From the NCBI GenBank assembly GCA_016744535.1, contig JADGEE010000019.1:1-38455 (forward strand): a stretch of 38,455 nt of DNA, read 5' to 3'. Below are positions 2,712 to 36,055 of this stretch, in pieces. The translations under genes and the position numbers were made by a program. The stretch's first letter is position 1. Each line of letters starts with the position of its first letter. The notes below the pieces were generated by a model. The model was not told the origin of the DNA. It ran no database searches and was given only the letters and a program-made list of their open reading frames with translations. This DNA comes from Campylobacteraceae bacterium (GTDB lineage: Bacteria > Campylobacterota > Campylobacteria > Campylobacterales > BB28).

Positions 2712-3926
2712 TTGAATCAAAATTATATAAGTGTTACAAATTTTACTAATCAATTTAAAGCTTATAGCGAAGAGACTTTTCAGAGTGTTTTTATAAAAGG
2801 TGAAATTTCTAATTTAGTTATTCACACATCAGGACATATCTACTTTTCTCTTAAAGATGAAAAATCTATTATTAAATGTATAATGTTTAAAAATTATAGA
2901 TATAATTTGAAGTTTAATTTAGAAAATGGAGATAATATATTAATTAGAGGTAAATTAAATATCTATACTCCAAGGGGTGAATATAATATTTTATGCTTTA
3001 ATATCTCAAAAGAGGGAATTGGAGATTTAACTAAAAGATATGAAGAGTTAAAAGAGAAATTAGCCAAAAAAAATTATTTTGATTCGAGTCATAAAAAATC
3101 ACTTCCAAAAATTATAAATCATATTGTAATTATTACTGCAAATCAAGGTGCTGGTTTAGCCGATATGTTAAAAATTGCAAATAAGAGATTTGCTTTAGTA
3201 AAAATTACTCTAATTGATACTTTAGTTCAAGGAAATAGTGCAAAAGATGATATTGCAAAAAATATTCAAATAGCTGATAGATTAAATAGTGATGTAATTA
3301 TCATAGGACGAGGAGGTGGCAGTCAAGAGGATTTATGGGCGTTTAATGAAGAGATTGTAGCCGATGCTGTATTTAACGCAAAAACTTTAATAGTTTCAGC
3401 AGTTGGACACGAGAGCGATTTAGTAATAAGTGATTTAGTAGCTGATATTAGGGCATCAACTCCATCAAATGCAATAGAGATAATTTTGCCTGATAGTGAT
3501 GAGTTAATATTAAGTATTGATTCATTAATAGATAAATTTAATATGCAATTTAATCGTATTTTGTACAAAAAATCAGAAGAGTTAAATTACTTAAAAAAAA
3601 GTTTTACACAAAATTCAATTGAATCTAAAATTGAATTTTATAATTTAGAGATAAAAGAGTTAAAAAATAGATTTAATAAAGCATTTGAATTTTTAATAGA
3701 GAAAAAAGAGGCTAATTTAAACCATTTAAAAGAATCAATAGAGTTTAATCACCCATCTAAAAGAGTTTCAAGTCATAATGCACAATTAGTTAAACAAAAT
3801 AGATTAATAAATTTAGAAGAGATTCAAGTTGGTGAAACATTTCAACTACAAGATGGAAAATTTAAAGTTGGAGTGAAGGTTCTTTACAAAGAGAACGCAG
3901 AAATTATTAAAATACAGAAGGATTAA
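2712..3926 (+). CDS. xseA: Exodeoxyribonuclease VII large subunit
   Basis: Catalytic subunit of exonuclease VII, which degrades single-stranded DNA into oligonucleotides in mismatch and recombinational repair. 404 residues, shorter than the enterobacterial protein (about 450) but usual for this phylum. An OB-fold nucleic-acid-binding domain lies at about 1-100 (ISNLVIHTSGHIYFSLKD). The nuclease core follows: GRGGGSQEDLWAFN and SAVGHESDLVISDLVADIRA, the latter with Ser in place of the commoner Thr (VGHETD). A coiled-coil region runs from about 255 to 350. The start is TTG at 2712, chosen because AAGGATAATC precedes it and the conserved N-terminal ISVTNF begins at once. It leads a tight operon with apbC and dnaG. 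xseB is not in the window. Confidence 0.95.
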   Translation: MNQNYISVTNFTNQFKAYSEETFQSVFIKGEISNLVIHTSGHIYFSLKDEKSIIKCIMFKNYRYNLKFNLENGDNILIRGKLNIYTPRGEYNILCFNISKEGIGDLTKRYEELKEKLAKKNYFDSSHKKSLPKIINHIVIITANQGAGLADMLKIANKRFALVKITLIDTLVQGNSAKDDIAKNIQIADRLNSDVIIIGRGGGSQEDLWAFNEEIVADAVFNAKTLIVSAVGHESDLVISDLVADIRASTPSNAIEIILPDSDELILSIDSLIDKFNMQFNRILYKKSEELNYLKKSFTQNSIESKIEFYNLEIKELKNRFNKAFEFLIEKKEANLNHLKESIEFNHPSKRVSSHNAQLVKQNRLINLEEIQVGETFQLQDGKFKVGVKVLYKENAEIIKIQKD

Positions 3927-3927
3927 A

Positions 3928-4959
3928 TTGAAACAAGAGATTTTAAATTTACTAAAAGAGATAAAATATCCTAATTTAGATAAAAATATAGTGGAACTTA
4001 AAGTTATAAATGATATTAAAATTAATAAAAATGAAGTTGAAATAACTCTTCAAGTTACAAAAGAGGATGCCTTTAAAAAACTTGAAAAGTCTATTAAAAC
4101 AAAACTCAAAAATAGACCTATTAAAGTAAAAATTATAAATATTGCTCCAACTCCTAAAAAAGATATGAATTATGGAACTAGTTTAAAGCCAAATAATAGA
4201 GCCCCTTATGCAAAAAAAATAATTGCAGTTACAAGTGGTAAAGGTGGGGTTGGAAAGAGTACAGTAGCTGTTAATTTCTCAATTGCCTTAGCACAAGATG
4301 GTTTTAGTGTAGGGCTTTTAGATGCTGATGTATATGGGCCAAATGTACCTCGAATGCTTCAAGTTGCAGATGAAAAACTTCAGTGGAATGACAATGATAA
4401 AATTATTCCTAGTGAAAATTTCGGAATAAAAATTATGAGTGTAGGGCTTACAACTCCGAGTAGTGATACTCCGCTTGTTTGGAGAAGTTCAGTTGCGGTT
4501 TCGGCTTTAATTCAATTTTTAGAAGATGTTGATTGGGGAGAACTTGACTTTTTAGTTATTGATATGCCACCAGGGACTGGAGATGTACAATTAACTATGG
4601 CACAAGAGTTGCCAATAACTGCTGGGGTTATCGTTACAACTCCTCAATTAATATCAACTGATGATGTGAGTCGGGCTATTATGATGTTTAAAGATATAAA
4701 AGTAAAAATCGGTGGACTTGTAGAGAATATGAGTTACTTTATTGCACCTGATACTAAAAATAGATATGATATTTTTGGAACTGGTGGAGGTGAGAAAATA
4801 GCTTCTAAATATAATATTCCACTTTTAGGAAAAATCCCTTTAGATATGGAAGTTAGAGAATTTTCAGATAGTGGAACTCCTGCTGTGGCTATGGGAAATG
4901 ATGAACAAAAAAATTATTATAAAGATATAGTTAAAAATTTATTAAAAGAGATAAAATAA
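3928..4959 (+). CDS. apbC: ApbC/Mrp-type iron-sulfur carrier ATPase
   Basis: P-loop ATPase of the Mrp/NBP35/ApbC family, thought to bind and deliver Fe-S clusters to apoenzymes in the cytoplasm. 343 residues. Residues 1-90 form the DUF59/MIP18-like domain; the deviant Walker A GKGGVGKST is at 104-112, followed by DADVYGPNVPRML (switch I) and DMPPGTGD. At 273-276, where many family members carry the cluster-ligating CPxC motif, this protein reads APDT (NMSYFIAPDTKNRYDIFG). Some alphaproteobacterial relatives, from memory, show the same change, so it is a subtype rather than damage. TTG start at 3928, one base after the xseA stop, with AGAAGGAT as ribosome site inside the end of xseA. Middle gene of xseA-apbC-dnaG. 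Confidence 0.92.
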   Translation: MKQEILNLLKEIKYPNLDKNIVELKVINDIKINKNEVEITLQVTKEDAFKKLEKSIKTKLKNRPIKVKIINIAPTPKKDMNYGTSLKPNNRAPYAKKIIAVTSGKGGVGKSTVAVNFSIALAQDGFSVGLLDADVYGPNVPRMLQVADEKLQWNDNDKIIPSENFGIKIMSVGLTTPSSDTPLVWRSSVAVSALIQFLEDVDWGELDFLVIDMPPGTGDVQLTMAQELPITAGVIVTTPQLISTDDVSRAIMMFKDIKVKIGGLVENMSYFIAPDTKNRYDIFGTGGGEKIASKYNIPLLGKIPLDMEVREFSDSGTPAVAMGNDEQKNYYKDIVKNLLKEIK

Positions 4960-30004: not shown

Positions 30005-31267
30005 TCAATTTACTTTAATCACAAAATAATTACTATTATCTTTATAAAAATAGTGAAATTTAAATTTATGAAGCTTTATTATCTCACTTACTATATAGAG
30101 TCCTAGACCAAATCCCTTTTGATTAATTTCATTTAAATTACCTTTAAAAAATGGTTCTATATATTTACTAAAATTCTCTTTTAACTCTTCACCTTGATTT
30201 ATAAACATTAAATTTTTATTTTTGTTATCATACTTAATTTCTACTCTTTTATTATTAGAATATTTAATAGCATTATCAATCAAATTTTTAATTGCAATTG
30301 CAAAAAAATTAAAATCTACACTTAAAATTATGTTCTCTTTAAAGTTAATTTTTACTAAATTTTTATCAATCATTGCTATATCAATAGCTTCATCAATTAA
30401 ATCAATTACTCTACTATTTTGAAGTCTTAATCTATTTTGACCAGATGTAATCTCCTCTATCATTACAGATTCTTTAACTAAAACTTCCATTCTATGGAAA
30501 ATATTTATGAGTCTTTTTTGATTTTTACTATCTTCTAATAGTGCTATTGCTACTTTTCCTTTTGTAATAGGCGTTTTTAATTCGTGCATTATATTTCGTA
30601 AAAATAGTTGTCTTGAATTTATAAGTCTATTTATCTTTTTAGTTGAAATTTCAAGTGCATTTGCAACATCTGCAATTTCATCTTTTGAATCAATTTTAAA
30701 AGAGATACTAAAATCACCATTTCCAAACTTCTCTACATCTCTTTTTAACTTTTTTAGTGGTAAGAGTTTTTTAATAGTAAAAATATAAGAGAGTATAAAA
30801 ATCAATTCAATAAAAATTAAAAAAGATATAGCTAAATTATTATTATATGGTTTGAAATTTAACTCTTTTAATAAAATATCTTTAAATGGACTATTTTCAT
30901 AAATATATAAAGTAGAATCATATTGTAATAATTTAGAACCAAATTTATCCATATTATTATTTTTATGATGTGGAGGTTTTGGACGATTATTAATATTCAT
31001 TTTTAATACTTTTGCATTTTTTAATATAGTGTTTTTATCTTTTATATACTCAACACCCAAAGGCTTAAGAAATTTATTAAACTCTTTAAAATTAAGTGAT
31101 AATATTACATTTTCTCTAATAGTATGAAAAACTTCTCCATATTTTATCTTGATACTCTTATAATATTTTTCTTTGTCTAACTTATTAAATAGTGTAAAAG
31201 CAAAAATAACTGAACTAAATGAGAGTATAAAAACTACTGTTAAAGTAAAAATTATAGAACGATTCAT
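30005..31267 (-). CDS. ArsS-type sensor histidine kinase (copy 1)
   Basis: 420 residues. TM1 at about 7-27 and TM2 at about 143-163 flank a sensor of about 115 residues that contains a His/Asn-rich stretch ([14 protein letters not shown]). Then come HAMP, DHp with His228 in [15 protein letters not shown], and HATPase with [12 protein letters not shown] and GFGLGLYIV. The [12 protein letters not shown] box is characteristic of Campylobacterota ArsS-like kinases (acid/envelope responsive in Helicobacter). It overlaps its response regulator by four bases. Its last 90 residues are nearly identical to those of the second kinase at 32480-33739 while the sensor is not, pointing to gene conversion or selective retention. 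Confidence 0.92.
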
Positions 31268-31932
31268 CTCTCTAATTTATATCCAATTCCACGAATAGAG
31301 AATATATATTTTGGCTCTTTTGGATTATCTTCGATTTTATGTCTAATTCTAAAGATTATCACATCTATACTCTTATTTGAGCTATCTTCATTAATTGCAT
31401 CCACATTCATAATTAACTCTTCTCTCGAAATTACGAAACCTCTCTTTTGAATTAAATAGCTAAGTATTCCAAATTCTGCATTTGTAAACTCTAATTTTTT
31501 ATCTTTAAAAAATATTTGCATTCCATCTTTATCAACTCTAAAATCATTTTTTTGTTCTGTTTTTGGCTTAATTTTATATCTTCTTAAAACTGTTGAGATT
31601 CTAGCTTCTAGCTCTCTTGGGTCATAAGGCTTAGGTAGATAATCCTCTGCACCCATTTTAAGTGCAGTTACTTTATCAGCTACATCACTTCTAGCTGAAG
31701 ATATTATAATTGGAATTTTATGTTTTGCTAAAATCTCTCTACAAACATCTATTCCATCCATATTTGGTAGAGTTAAATCAAGAATTATTAAATCAAATCT
31801 TTGGATATTTAAAGTTGAGAGTGCAAGATATGGCTCATCAATATTTTTAACCTCTATTTGAAATTTAGATAAATACTCAATTAACATCTCTGCTAACTCA
31901 ATATCATCTTCTATCATCAATATTTTTATCAT
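31264..31932 (-). CDS. ArsR/OmpR-type response regulator (copy 1)
   Basis: 222 residues. Receiver: Asp9/Asp10, phospho-acceptor Asp52 in [11 protein letters not shown], Lys101 in [11 protein letters not shown]-terminal winged helix (about 128-222) with [14 protein letters not shown] and [10 protein letters not shown]. Paired with kinase copy 1, whose ATG overlaps its stop. A TATAAT element lies upstream at 31956-31961. Together with the Spy-like gene just upstream it forms a Cpx/Ars-like envelope stress module; direct targets are not shown by the sequence. Confidence 0.93.
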
Positions 31933-31955
31933 AAAATAACTCTTTTTTTTCTGAA

Positions 31956-31961
31956 ATTATA
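31956..31961 (-). promoter_or_regulatory. Candidate -10 of two-component system 1
   Basis: TAGTATATAATTTC on the minus strand gives TATAAT about 25 bases before the regulator ATG at 31932. It sits between that gene and the hairpin at 31975-31999, so the regulator-kinase pair probably has its own promoter. Confidence 0.45.
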
Positions 31962-31974
31962 TACTAATGAAAGT

Positions 31975-31999
31975 AGAGAAATAGTTAAACTATCTCTCT
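31975..31999. terminator. Hairpin after Spy-like gene
   Basis: AGAGA-A-ATAGT (31975-31985) pairs with ACTAT-C-TCTCT (31989-31999) around a TAA loop, one A-C mismatch. It is immediately downstream of the minus-strand Spy-like stop at 32008 and upstream of the promoter for two-component system 1. No strong T-run follows, so termination efficiency is uncertain. Confidence 0.45.
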
Positions 32000-32007
32000 T
32001 AAATTAA

Positions 32008-32421
32008 TTATTGTAGGCTATTGTAGAGTGTAGTTATTTGCTCTGATGTTAAAACACTAAATAAATTCTCCATATAAGTTGCTTCACTGTCTATATGAGT
32101 TGTAAAATTAGCTGTTGCACCCTCTACAAAAAGTGTTTTGTTAAATCCAGTTGAAGTGATAGAACTTTTTAAGTTTGTCTCTCTAGGGTTATTTATTCTA
32201 TTACTCTGTCTTGCATAATTCATATCTAACATAATTTGTTGAATACTCAAAGTTTGAGCAGTTGTTAAGTTTAAATCTTGAAACATTGAAAGCATTCCTC
32301 CACTATGCATTCCTCCGCCACCAAATGAACCTCCACCATGATGTCCTCCTCTTGCACTAAGAGTTGATACACTTAAAAGTGTAGCTAATGCTATACTTAA
32401 TAATAAACCTGTTCTTTTCAT
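32008..32421 (-). CDS. Spy/CpxP-like periplasmic protein
   Basis: 137 residues. Signal peptide MKRTGLLLSIALATLLSVSTLSA, then a Gly/His-rich start (RGGHHGGGSFGGGGMHSGGM) that could bind metal, then a helical part with two LTxxQ-type motifs (LNLTTAQ and LTSEQ). LTxxQ motifs define Spy/CpxP/ZraP periplasmic chaperone-like proteins, which feed back on Cpx-type sensors or buffer misfolded proteins and metals. ATG at 32421 follows AAAAGGAGATAAA, and TATAAT is present upstream. It stands alone between two ArsRS-type systems, so it is a likely target and/or modulator of one or both (inference). Confidence 0.78.
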   Translation of the reverse strand: MKRTGLLLSIALATLLSVSTLSARGGHHGGGSFGGGGMHSGGMLSMFQDLNLTTAQTLSIQQIMLDMNYARQSNRINNPRETNLKSSITSTGFNKTLFVEGATANFTTHIDSEATYMENLFSVLTSEQITTLYNSLQ

Positions 32422-32451
32422 TTTATCTCCTTTTCTTTTATAAGATGTAAA

Positions 32452-32457
32452 ATTATA
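32452..32457 (-). promoter_or_regulatory. Candidate -10 of Spy-like gene
   Basis: On the minus strand AGTTTATAATTTTAC gives TATAAT about 31 bases before the ATG at 32421, in the 58-bp gap after kinase copy 2. It indicates separate and probably regulator-controlled expression. Confidence 0.45.
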
Positions 32458-32479
32458 AACTATTAAAATGAATAACTTT

Positions 32480-33739
32480 TTAATGAAAAGTTAATGGTTG
32501 GTTAATGAATTCTATTACAAAATAATTTTTATTATCTTTATGAAAATATTTAAATTTAAATTTATGAAGCTTTACTATTTCATTTACAATATAAAGTCCT
32601 AAACCAAACCCTTTTTGATTAATTTCATTTAAATTACCTTTAAAAAATGGTTCTATATATTTACTAAAATCCTCTTTTAACTCTTCGCTTTGATTTATAA
32701 AAGTTAAATTTTTATTTTTATTTTTAATTTCTACTCTTTTATTATTAGAATATTTAATAGCATTATCAATTAAATTTTTACAAATTAATGAAAATAGTTT
32801 AAAATCGACTTGCAAAACTTCATTCGTTAAATTATGTTTTACTAAACTTTTATCTAAAAAGAGTAATTCCATTGCATTATCTACAATATCAATTAATCTA
32901 TGCTCTTTTAAGTTAAGTTGAATATTATTAGAAGTTAGCCTCTCTATTTCACTCATCTCATTAATCAAAACCTCTAGTCTATTAAACACATTTTTTAAAA
33001 TAGTTTTATTTGTACTATCACATATTAACTCTATACAAATTTTTCCTTTTGTAATTGGAGTTTTTAATTCGTGCATTATGTTTCTTAAAAATAGTTTTCT
33101 AGCACCTCTTAAATTTTTAATTTTTTCAACAGCATTGTGAAACTCATTTGCCACAAGTGAAATTTCATCTCTTTTATCTGAAATAATATTTATATCTAAA
33201 TCTCCCTCACCAAATTTTTTTATCTCTTTTGCTAATCTCTTAAGTGGTAAAAGACTTCTTTTTAGTGCTAAATAAATAAGTGTAAGGACTGCTAAAATAG
33301 ACAAATAAATTAAAATTGCATAATATATATAATTCTCTTTTTTAGAAGTATCTTTAAGTAATATTTGAAAATCAATCTCATTTACATAAAAATACTTTAC
33401 TTCATTTAGAGTTAATATCTGTAATCCCTTTTGAACAATTTGAATAAATTGGTCATTTATTTTTAAATTTATTTTTGCTTCTCTGGCATATTGGAGTATA
33501 GGATATGGATTATTTACTATTTTTAAATTTTGATTAGATAAAACTTCTCTAAGCCTCTCAAAATCTCTATGTTTTCTAAATGAGTTTATAGCTTTTGATA
33601 TTTCTCTAGTTTTAATTACATCAATATACTCATACCTTGCATTTAATTCAACTAAAAAATAGATAAAAAGAGCTGTTATAAAACTGATAGCTAAGATAAA
33701 AATTATATTTAATTTTAAAAATATTGATTCTTGATTCAT
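32480..33739 (-). CDS. ArsS-type sensor histidine kinase (copy 2)
   Basis: 419 residues. TM1 at about 10-32 and TM2 at about 138-158 with a sensor of about 105 residues unlike that of copy 1. HAMP follows, then DHp with His223 in [15 protein letters not shown] and HATPase with [12 protein letters not shown] and GFGLGLYIV. The C-terminus carries a short extra tail (INQPLTFH). 58 consecutive bases (32613-32670) are identical to 30117-30174 of copy 1. It overlaps its response regulator by four bases. Signal unknown; ArsS relatives respond to acid or envelope stress. Confidence 0.92.
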   Translation of the reverse strand: MNQESIFLKLNIIFILAISFITALFIYFLVELNARYEYIDVIKTREISKAINSFRKHRDFERLREVLSNQNLKIVNNPYPILQYAREAKINLKINDQFIQIVQKGLQILTLNEVKYFYVNEIDFQILLKDTSKKENYIYYAILIYLSILAVLTLIYLALKRSLLPLKRLAKEIKKFGEGDLDINIISDKRDEISLVANEFHNAVEKIKNLRGARKLFLRNIMHELKTPITKGKICIELICDSTNKTILKNVFNRLEVLINEMSEIERLTSNNIQLNLKEHRLIDIVDNAMELLFLDKSLVKHNLTNEVLQVDFKLFSLICKNLIDNAIKYSNNKRVEIKNKNKNLTFINQSEELKEDFSKYIEPFFKGNLNEINQKGFGLGLYIVNEIVKLHKFKFKYFHKDNKNYFVIEFINQPLTFH

Positions 33740-34401
33740 TGACTTAAAAACTTATAACCTACTCCACGAATAGATTTAATATATTTTGGATTTTTTGAAT
33801 CATCATCTAGTTTTTGTCTAATTCTACTCACTATTACATCTATACTTCTATCGCTACTATCCCAATTTATCGCTTCAACATTATTTGCAATAAACTCTCT
33901 TGATATTACCATCTCTCTTTTTTCTATAAATAATTTCAATATCTCATATTCTGCTTGAGTTAAACTTAAAACTTCACCATTTTTTAATATCTGCATCTTC
34001 TCTTGATTAATTTGAAATTCACTATTTGAATTATTAATATTTGCATATCTTCTAAGCACACTTTTAACTCTTGCTACTAACTCTCTTGGCTCATAAGGTT
34101 TTGGTAAATAATCATCCGCACCTAACTCTAAACCCATTACTTTATCACTCAAATCACCTCTTGCAGTTGAGATAATAATAGGAGTGTTATATTTTTTACG
34201 AATTATTTTACATACATCAAGCCCATCCATTTCAGGAAGGGATAAATCTAAAATAATTAAATCATATTTATCAATTTCAAGTGAATTTAGTGCAGAGGAT
34301 GGTTTTGCAAAACCTGTCACATTCATACCGTAACTAGAGAGAAACTGTTTTAGGAGTAGAGTTATCTCTTCGTCATCCTCTATCATTAAAATTTCTACCA
34401 T
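33736..34401 (-). CDS. ArsR/OmpR-type response regulator (copy 2)
   Basis: 221 residues. Receiver with Asp9/Asp10, Asp52 in ILDLSLPEMDG, Thr79 and Lys101 in YLPKPYEPRE; winged helix with LTQAEYEILKLFI and SIRGVGYKFL. It is a clear paralogue of the regulator at 31264-31932 (same length, same key residues). ATG at 34401 follows TTGGAGTTAAA. It is first in the two-gene operon with kinase copy 2. The promoter lies in the short gap before the tRNA gene and is divergent from it. Confidence 0.93.
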   Translation of the reverse strand: MVEILMIEDDEEITLLLKQFLSSYGMNVTGFAKPSSALNSLEIDKYDLIILDLSLPEMDGLDVCKIIRKKYNTPIIISTARGDLSDKVMGLELGADDYLPKPYEPRELVARVKSVLRRYANINNSNSEFQINQEKMQILKNGEVLSLTQAEYEILKLFIEKREMVISREFIANNVEAINWDSSDRSIDVIVSRIRQKLDDDSKNPKYIKSIRGVGYKFLSQ

Positions 34402-34482
34402 TTTAACTCCAAAATTTTACTGTTATTTTAACATAAATTTATAAATTTCTTATTATTAAGTTAATTTTAATGAATATTCTTA

Positions 34483-34488
34483 TATAAT
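34483..34488 (+). promoter_or_regulatory. Candidate -10 of tRNA-Phe
   Basis: CTTATATAATTTC gives TATAAT 17 bases before the tRNA 5' end, with an AT-rich T-tract upstream. This is a good position for a tRNA promoter in a region divergent from the response regulator gene. Confidence 0.5.
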
Positions 34489-34505
34489 TTCACCTCATAA
34501 ATTAC

Positions 34506-34581
<76 letters not shown>

Positions 34582-34697
34582 CTCAACAAACCTCATAAAA
34601 TCAACAGTCTAAATCAAAAAGCATTAAAATTTAAGTTTTCTAAAGAAAATGTTTTCCAAGCTATTTCAATTTTGCTCGTTATTGATAATAATTTTAT

Positions 34698-34836
34698 TTA
34701 ATTCCTGATGTTACGATGACTTTTCAAGAGTATCCATAGTTTGGGCTTTCAAAACATCTAATAATACACTGTTAATATGTCAAGAAGACCTATAATGGGG
34801 AATATATTAAAAAACTTAGCGTAACATCAGTTAATT
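34698..34836. mobile_element. MITE-like element with TIRs and 6-bp target duplication
   Basis: The element at about 34705-34830 is bounded by CTGATGTTACG (34705-34715) and its exact inverse CGTAACATCAG (34820-34830); a few further bases match weakly inside. It is flanked by TTAATT at 34698-34703 and again at 34831-34836, a 6-bp direct repeat like a target-site duplication (one unmatched C at 34704). The 126-bp interior has no long open frame, so it would be non-autonomous. The parent transposon is not in the window. Confidence 0.55.
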
Positions 34837-34928
34837 AGTATCGTATTTGAGTAGTTTAAGTTTACATGTTTTCCAATCTTTACCATTTTTTTAATAGATT
34901 CTGAATTACAATGTTTACATTTCATCAT
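34827..34928 (-). pseudogene. Possible transposase N-terminal fragment
   Basis: A 33-residue open frame from ATG 34928 reading MMKCKHCNSESIKKMVKIGK and on to a TGA inside the repeat of the MITE-like element. A start of the MKCxxCxS form with Lys-rich follow-up resembles the zinc-ribbon beginning of IS1- or IS1595-type transposases, but only one CxxC knuckle is present and there is no catalytic domain. Taken as debris; the attribution is weak. Confidence 0.3.
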
Positions 34929-35158
34929 TTAAGCTTTTTTTTGATTTTTTTTCATAATTTTAGCATATCTTATATTTTTAAATTAATTTAGCTGTGAAAG
35001 AACGCAACGCCAAAGATAAAAAATAAGGAGAGGATAGATTGAGATGTGGGGGGACATCCCAAAAAATATGAGGTTGAGGAAAAATTTAAATTGATTTATA
35101 TTTAAATAAATTTTTTATACCTTAAAAGTATAAGATAAAACTACTAATGAATATTAAA

Positions 35159-36055
35159 TCAAATGTTAATGAATGTTAATAGACTTATAATAATAATAAG
35201 AAAAATATCTATTTTATTTTTAAATTTAAGTGAACCTAATACATCACTTTTTAATATTTTTTTTCTACCATCTCCAAAATATGGCTTTTTTTTAATTTTT
35301 CCAAAATAACTAGTATCACCACCTAGAGAAATATTAAGTGAAATTGCCATTGCTGAAATTGGATAACCTGCATTTGGACTTTCATGTAAATTTGCATATT
35401 TTATAAATTTAAGATTATCTATTTTAAGTGAAAATAAAATAATTAAGATAGCCGTTAATCTAGCAGGAATAAAATTTATAATATCATCAAATTTTGCGGA
35501 AAATTTACCAAAATTTATATATTTATCATTTTTGTATCCAACCATAGAATCAAGTGTATTAATAGCCTTATAAACCATAACCCCCTCTAATCCAAATAGT
35601 ATTAAATAAAAAAGTGGTGCTACAACTCCATCGCTTAAATTTTCTGCATAAGTCTCAATACAAGCTTTATTAATACTACTTTCACTTAAATTTTTAGTAT
35701 CACGACTTACAAGCATAGAGATTAAATATTTAGGATTATTTGAATTAATAACACTTTTAACACTATTATAAAGCATTTTTGAAGCGATTGCTGTTGAGGC
35801 TAAAATTGAAGTTAAAATTATCTCTATATATATGTTATTAAATAATGAAAATATTAAAGTTATAAAAAAAGAGATAGAAAAAACTAAACTTAAAAGTGAA
35901 ATATTTAAAATAAAACCTCTAAAAATTGAATTTTTATAAAAATTTTTCTCAAACCAACTTATATATTTACCCATTATTACAACAGGATGAGTAATTTTAA
36001 ATTCACCTATAAACTTATCAATTAAATAAGCTATAAGTGATATTTCTAAATTAAT
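35159..36055 (-). CDS. cbiB: Cobalamin biosynthesis protein CbiB/CobD
   Basis: Membrane-embedded adenosylcobinamide-phosphate synthase, which attaches the aminopropanol(-phosphate) arm to adenosylcobyric acid. The frame contains [46 protein letters not shown] and SYFG, hallmarks of CbiB. The first canonical start is ATG 35974, but the frame is open to 36073, and the 27 codons before that ATG encode a TM helix and [13 protein letters not shown], the conserved HPVxxMG segment of the family. I therefore extend the gene to ATT 36055 ([12 protein letters not shown] follows), about 298 residues, the family's usual size. No ATG, GTG or TTG exists there in frame; ATT would be a rare start. GGGAAG lies 8 bases before it, inside the end of pyrE. 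It overlaps the pyrE stop. Confidence 0.85.

What the first reader, a model, noticed from the sequence alone, without database searches (positions are those of the whole stretch)
34698..34836. Small non-autonomous transposon-like element next to tRNA-Phe
Eleven-base perfect terminal inverted repeats (CTGATGTTACG / CGTAACATCAG) enclose about 104 bp without coding capacity, flanked by a TTAATT direct repeat. That is the structure of a MITE. No matching full-length element is in the window.
Basis: seen in the sequence. Interest (0 to 1): 0.5.

Follow-up and report, generated by a model that had tools for sequence, protein, structure and literature searches.

The report
Short jumping-DNA relic beside tRNA-Phe
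This 126-base stretch is one of seven near-identical copies of a tiny non-coding transposon that relies on another element's enzyme to move; it is a real but ordinary kind of mobile DNA, new mainly as a family.

Summary
Window 34705-34830 (126 bp) has 11-bp perfect terminal inverted repeats and no coding capacity. The genome carries 6 further copies: 5 complete, the 6 complete ones differing by 1-6 of 126 positions, and 1 lacking its right end. The target duplication is 7 bp, not TTAATT: perfect in 4 of 6 complete copies, 6 of 7 in the window (TTAATTC/TTAATTA), 5 of 7 in C73. An 1121-bp IS with the same ends lies on contig C60. Its transposase is nearest NCBIfam IS701_2 but below cut-off, 224 of 250 bits. 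Relatives have CTSAYSTTACG-type ends and perfect 7-bp duplications in 8 of 11 places: 8 of 10 on plasmids (two probably one insertion), 0 of 1 in the order. The C60 transposase lacks 19 residues including the Y and R of the YREK motif, so present mobility is doubtful. The interior matches no IS found; only 13-18 terminal bases are shared. No clean empty site was found. A new MITE family; the 7-bp duplication departs from published IS701 (4 bp) and ISAba11 (5 bp).

The parts
34698..34704 (.). left target-site duplication, TTAATTC
   Evidence: 6 of 7 match to right copy; 7-bp length set by other copies
34705..34715 (+). left terminal inverted repeat CTGATGTTACG (end A; 13 nt CTGATGTTACGAT shared with the ends of the C60 IS)
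34716..34819 (.). 104-bp non-coding interior, no match to any IS found beyond short chance-level pieces
34820..34830 (-). right terminal inverted repeat (end B, read inward CTGATGTTACGCTAA; 15 nt shared with single ends on C2, C8, C37, C118 and C153)
34831..34837 (.). right target-site duplication, TTAATTA
34506..34581 (+). neighbour: tRNA-Phe (GAA), 123 bp before the element; not part of it

Best explanation
The element is a MITE: a 126-bp non-autonomous transposon. Shown: 7 copies in one genome, inverted ends, 7-bp target duplications, and an 1121-bp IS with the same ends. Inferred: a DDE transposase of the IS701_2-like (IS4-superfamily) group binds the CTGATGTTACG ends in trans, cuts the MITE out or copies it, and inserts it at AT-rich sites resembling TTANTAA, where repair of a 7-bp stagger gives the duplication. 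Inferred: the interior is filler, and the element is a passenger with no role for tRNA-Phe. Inferred: the transposase that spread it is, or is related to, that of the C60 IS or the degraded sister ISs; the C60 protein itself is probably impaired now.
For: 6 further copies, 94-98% identical to the 156-bp query or part of it; 6 complete copies differ by 1-6 of 126 positions. Perfect 7-bp duplications in 5 of 8 elements examined (4 MITEs and the 214-bp C32 element) against 1 of 56 mismatched flank pairs. Same ends on the C60 IS, on the 214-bp C32 element (TTAATTA both sides) and beside degraded transposase remnants. The 13-base end pattern with up to 1 mismatch has 26 places in the genome against 6 for the reversed control. 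Relatives of the transposase have CTSAYSTTACG-type ends and perfect 7-bp duplications in 8 of 11 places, against 3 of 132 mismatched pairs, the C60 IS being included in that control.
Against: No clean empty site: G001, the only other genome held of the genus, has other sequence after tRNA-Phe and at the C40 and C153 sites. Duplications are imperfect in the window (6 of 7) and C73 (5 of 7), and absent at the C60 IS (4 of 7). The only full-length IS found scores 224 bits against the 250 cut-off and lacks 19 residues. Only 13-18 terminal bases are shared between MITE and IS ends. The one relative from the same order whose two ends could be read has no duplication (L130, 4 of 7). Movement was not observed.
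Confidence: 0.93

Rival explanations
1. A regulatory or processing hairpin: the element is transcribed with its neighbours and its RNA fold (terminator, processing site, small RNA) or a promoter in it is what is kept.
For: The RNA of 34698-34836 folds better than shuffles: -29.6 kcal/mol, z -2.90, 2 of 200 shuffles as good. Promoter-like matches in 34400-35200 are somewhat in excess (10 against 5.4, sd 2.3), and one on the minus strand starts in the left end (34714-34685).
Against: Inverted ends fold by construction. Across 6 copies no pair changes on both sides; of the mutations in the ends, two break a pair and two leave G-U. No terminator-like site in 34400-35200, no Rfam match in the element. 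Copies sit in different gene contexts (read by eye).
Confidence: 0.04
2. A repeat dispersed by recombination or copied with larger segments, not by transposition.
For: Other repeats crowd the same neighbourhoods (C153 and C165 share a further 130-bp stretch at 91%); the C73 copy sits where an IS end should be.
Against: Homology between MITE copies stops near the inverted ends and the adjoining flanks differ, and the flanks carry 7-bp duplications.
Confidence: 0.02
3. A chance palindrome.
For: 11-bp inverted pairs are common in this AT-rich window, 18 against a mean of 20.0.
Against: Pairs this G+C-rich are not (mean 0.03), and there are 6 more copies in the genome.
Confidence: 0.005

Closest known systems
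Bacterial MITEs, e.g. MITEAba12 of Acinetobacter (PMC6382973, abstract and one section read)
   Same: Short (113 bp there), no known CDS, terminal inverted repeats, target duplication, a related IS proposed as parent.
   Different: MITEAba12 has 16-bp imperfect ends and 9-bp duplications and ISAba12 as proposed parent; here 11-bp perfect ends, 7-bp duplications and an IS701_2-like partner.
IS701_2 (NCBIfam NF049921), which also takes in ISAba11
   Same: Best NCBIfam match of the C60 transposase (224 bits). Of 7 proteins scanned, 6 exceed the cut-off: L135, L137, L138, L152, L156 and the ISAba11-like L158; the C36 fragment (96 bits) does not.
   Different: The ISAba11-like copy L158 has TAGGACTTACGCA ends and, read from its flanks, a 5-bp TTAAT repeat; the partner group here has CTSAYSTTACG-type ends and 7 bp.
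IS701 family as defined in 'IS4 family goes genomic' (PMC2266710, passages and one section read)
   Same: DDE transposase related to the IS4 family.
   Different: Published: 1400-1550 bp, 4-bp duplication, YREK tyrosine in only 4 of 27. Here about 1.1 kb, 7 bp, and the YREK tyrosine present in the relatives that reach that region.

Membership tests
MITE | Short, non-coding, bounded by terminal inverted repeats | tested here: met
   126 bp, 11-bp perfect ends, no ORF of 60 aa or more
MITE | Several dispersed copies in one genome | tested here: met
   7 copies, 6 complete
MITE | Flanking target-site duplications of fixed length | tested here: met
   7 bp: perfect in 4 of 6 complete copies, 6 of 7 and 5 of 7 in the other two; C40, without a right end, not scored
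MITE | An autonomous element with matching ends | tested here: inconclusive
   1121-bp IS with the same 11-bp ends, but its transposase lacks 19 residues
MITE | Mobility shown (empty site or transposition) | tested here: inconclusive
   No orthologous empty site in G001 for the 3 sites tried: window, C40, C153
IS701_2 / NF049921 (the C60 IS) | Transposase above curated cut-off of 250 bits | tested here: not met
   224.2 bits; the relatives L135, L137, L138, L152, L156 exceed it
IS701 family of 2008 (the IS group) | 4-bp target duplication | tested here: not met
   7 bp in 8 of 11 relatives, no match in the other 3; definition from PMC2266710
IS701 family of 2008 (the IS group) | Length 1400-1550 bp | tested here: not met
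   1095-1148 bp except L136, 1436 bp
ISAba11 group (the IS group) | 5-bp target duplication | tested here: not met
   7 bp here; 5 bp for ISAba11 in PMC7885321 passages and in L158
ISPepr1 subgroup of IS4 | 7-8 bp duplication, 1500-1600 bp, ends YT-AA-YTT | tested here: not met
   Duplication length fits; length and ends do not

The most novel reading that the evidence does not exclude
The 1.1-kb ISs with CTSAYSTTACG-type ends, YREK transposases and 7-bp TTANTAA-like duplications (seen with the duplication on Acinetobacter, Piscirickettsia and Polaromonas plasmids; with the ends alone in a cyanobacterium and in this genome's order) form an unnamed subgroup distinct from IS701 (4 bp) and ISAba11 (5 bp), and this MITE family is its first known non-autonomous passenger, outliving its transposase in this genome.
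Probability: 0.35. Interest if true: 0.35.

Novelty: new member of a known kind. Interest (0 to 1): 0.22.

Why it matters
It gives a new MITE family with its probable partner IS, fixes the duplication length, and links it to an IS group whose 7-bp duplication does not fit the published definitions seen here. For annotation, the 126 bp are mobile DNA and not a tRNA-linked regulatory element. Biologically it is a routine passenger.

Tried and rejected
Empty site: G001 was searched with the window flanks and with the C40 and C153 neighbourhoods. One neighbouring gene aligns in each case, but what lies beyond the element's place differs (read by eye), so nothing is claimed. The other sites were not tried. 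The C173 copy abuts an end of another repeat (R2, also in the window), but only one flank is homologous, so it is not counted as an empty site.

MITE core outside this genome: 0 in viral contigs, 0 in genome contigs (exact 32-base pattern with one free base; the window's own genome may be left out there). In 398 genomes of the order, 2 had a match: the own genome, and G144 with about 38 bp at 83%, E 2.4e-4, which I treat as chance; only the top 2 candidates per genome were scored.

Transposase in genome contigs: no relative found from a single sequence. In 398 genomes of the order, 16 including the own one have a match, mostly partial, with at most 5 candidates scored per genome.

RNA element reading: rejected. 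Phage relatives of the sequence beside the element: none.

Literature: listings showed no paper on this MITE, on its end sequence as an IS end, or on a 7-bp IS701-type duplication. Several listings were cut (20 of 509; 20 of 26; 15 of 48; 8 of 43; 8 of 9) and most listed papers were not opened, PMC9208149 among them. Passages were read of PMC4853749, PMC6352166 (an IS701 element with a 4-bp repeat) and PMC7326120; a find in PMC10689435 gave nothing. ISfinder could not be consulted, and the ISAba11 family paper (Rieck 2012) is not held.

Full report
What is there. CTGATGTTACG (34705-34715) and its reverse complement (34820-34830) enclose 104 bp, 123 bp after tRNA-Phe (34506-34581). No ORF of 60 aa or more overlaps the element. 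Such 11-bp pairs are common in this AT-rich window by chance (18 against a mean of 20.0), but not with 5 or more G/C per arm: 1 observed, mean 0.03 in 30 simulations (threshold chosen after seeing the pair).

Copies. The genome (G000: 3.02 Mb, 174 contigs, unnamed) holds 7 copies: the window, C173, C73, C16, C165, C153 and C40. Six are complete and 126 bp long, differing by 1-6 positions; C40 has lost its right end. The adjoining flanks are unrelated, apart from stretches of other repeats.

Target duplication. C40 was left out for want of a right end. With the boundary at the inverted ends, left and right flanks of the other 8 elements (6 MITEs, the 214-bp C32 element, the C60 IS) agree at length 7 and at no neighbouring length: mean match 0.89 at 7, 0.48 at 6 and 0.45 at 8. 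The 7-bp match is perfect in 5 of 8 (C173, C16, C165, C153, C32), 6 of 7 in the window, 5 of 7 in C73 and 4 of 7 at the C60 IS. Mismatched flank pairs are perfect in 1 of 56, but 6 of 7 or better in 15 of 56, because the sites are AT-rich and mostly TTA-like. So the window's own duplication is not significant alone; the family's is.

Partner. The end pattern CTGATGTTACGAT with up to 1 mismatch has 26 places in the genome, 6 for the reversed control. They include an 1121-bp IS on C60 (7997-9117), the only full-length match of its kind; its 5 other matches are 32-43 bp pieces or similar. Its 347-aa protein matches NCBIfam NF049921, IS701_2, at 224 bits (cut-off 250), and Pfam DDE_5 below cut-off. 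Partial relatives lie on C36, C144, C118 and C153, and the C36 one is followed by CGTAACATCAG. End A of the MITE shares 13 bases with the C60 ends; end B shares 15 with single ends on C2, C8, C37, C118 and C153. In the own-genome loci held, the interior has no match outside the MITE copies beyond short pieces at E 0.07 or worse. So the MITE is a passenger by its ends and not a recognisable deletion of an IS found here.

State of the partner. Aligned with four relatives that span the region (L135, L138, L137, G188), with G012, which ends in it, and with C36, the C60 protein lacks 19 residues that in these relatives hold a tyrosine and an arginine (IYQKRW or IYEKRW); the following E and K remain. 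I read them as the Y and R of the YREK motif; the motif is named in PMC2266710 passages, its spacing is recalled. The gap could be real or an assembly fault. Either way no clearly intact autonomous copy was found here. The C60 IS also lies between a gyrB piece and an rha-like gene and has no 7-bp duplication.

The IS group elsewhere. tblastn in plasmids gave 277 records, all under 60% identity, 220 of them Piscirickettsia or Acinetobacter; many of the Acinetobacter rows listed are ISAba11 at about 24%. I read the ends of 11 closer relatives, chosen from the listed rows: 10 plasmid places (L135-L138, L152-L157) and one genome of the order (L130, G188). Perfect 7-bp duplications: 8 of 11; L136 and L138 probably are one insertion, giving 7 of 10. 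Not matching: L137 (3 of 7), L130 (4 of 7), L155 (1 of 7, right end altered). Mismatched pairs, C60 IS included: 3 of 132 perfect, 18 of 132 at 6 or more. The duplications read were TTATTTA, TTATTAA, TTAAAAA, ATTGTAA, TTAAGGT, TTACTAA and CTTATAA. An ISAba11-like copy (L158) gives 5 bp when read from its flanks, as in passages of PMC7885321; ISPna6 (L159) showed no clear duplication. The 2008 definition of IS701 is 4 bp and 1400-1550 bp (PMC2266710).

Distribution and empty sites. G001, the only other genome held of the genus and family (88% complete), has no copy. The stretch with tRNA-Phe and the response-regulator gene aligns there at 79%, but what follows differs, so there is no orthologous empty site to compare. 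The same was found for C40 and C153.

Hairpin reading. The RNA folds better than shuffles (z -2.90), as an element with long inverted ends would. Across 6 copies no compensatory change occurs, and no terminator-like site was found in 34400-35200, though promoter-like matches are somewhat in excess and one starts in the left end.

Verdict. A real MITE family, new as a family as far as these searches reach, mobilised in trans by an IS701_2-like transposase (inferred). Ordinary in kind.

Noticed in passing
window 34916-35014: A second repeat: 12 other matches in the genome (best 97% over 99 bp at the end of contig C86; several of the weak ones do not look related in the alignment), ending in TTAGCTGTGAAAGAACGCAACGCC; perhaps the end of another IS. 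Pfam found nothing in a 23-aa reverse-strand frame.
   Followed up: partly
L049 (C173) 508-672: The C173 MITE copy lies directly against an end of that second repeat: nested mobile DNA.
   Followed up: partly
L046 (C73) 1-226 and L083 (C36) 590-650: The C73 MITE stands where the last 13 bases of a C36-type IS end should be, which may explain its imperfect duplication (compared by eye).
   Followed up: partly
L150 (C60) about 2900-4010: A gyrB piece that looks split over three frames ends at the C60 IS; only its last part was scored (Pfam DNA_gyraseB and Toprim). Whether an intact gyrB lies elsewhere was not tested.
   Followed up: no
L150 (C60) 1190-1765: A reverse-transcriptase domain (Pfam RVT_1, E 9.4e-10) on the contig of the IS.
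   Followed up: no
L035 (C32) 479-692: A second, 214-bp element with the same ends and a perfect 7-bp duplication TTAATTA; not searched for genome-wide.
   Followed up: partly
L078 (C153) 454-938: A partial IS701_2-like element starts 18 bp from the C153 MITE and seems interrupted by a DDE_3 (IS630-type, recalled) transposase piece.
   Followed up: no
window 30005-34401: Two similar pairs of what look like response regulator and sensor kinase genes, in tandem, beside the tRNA (by eye).
   Followed up: no
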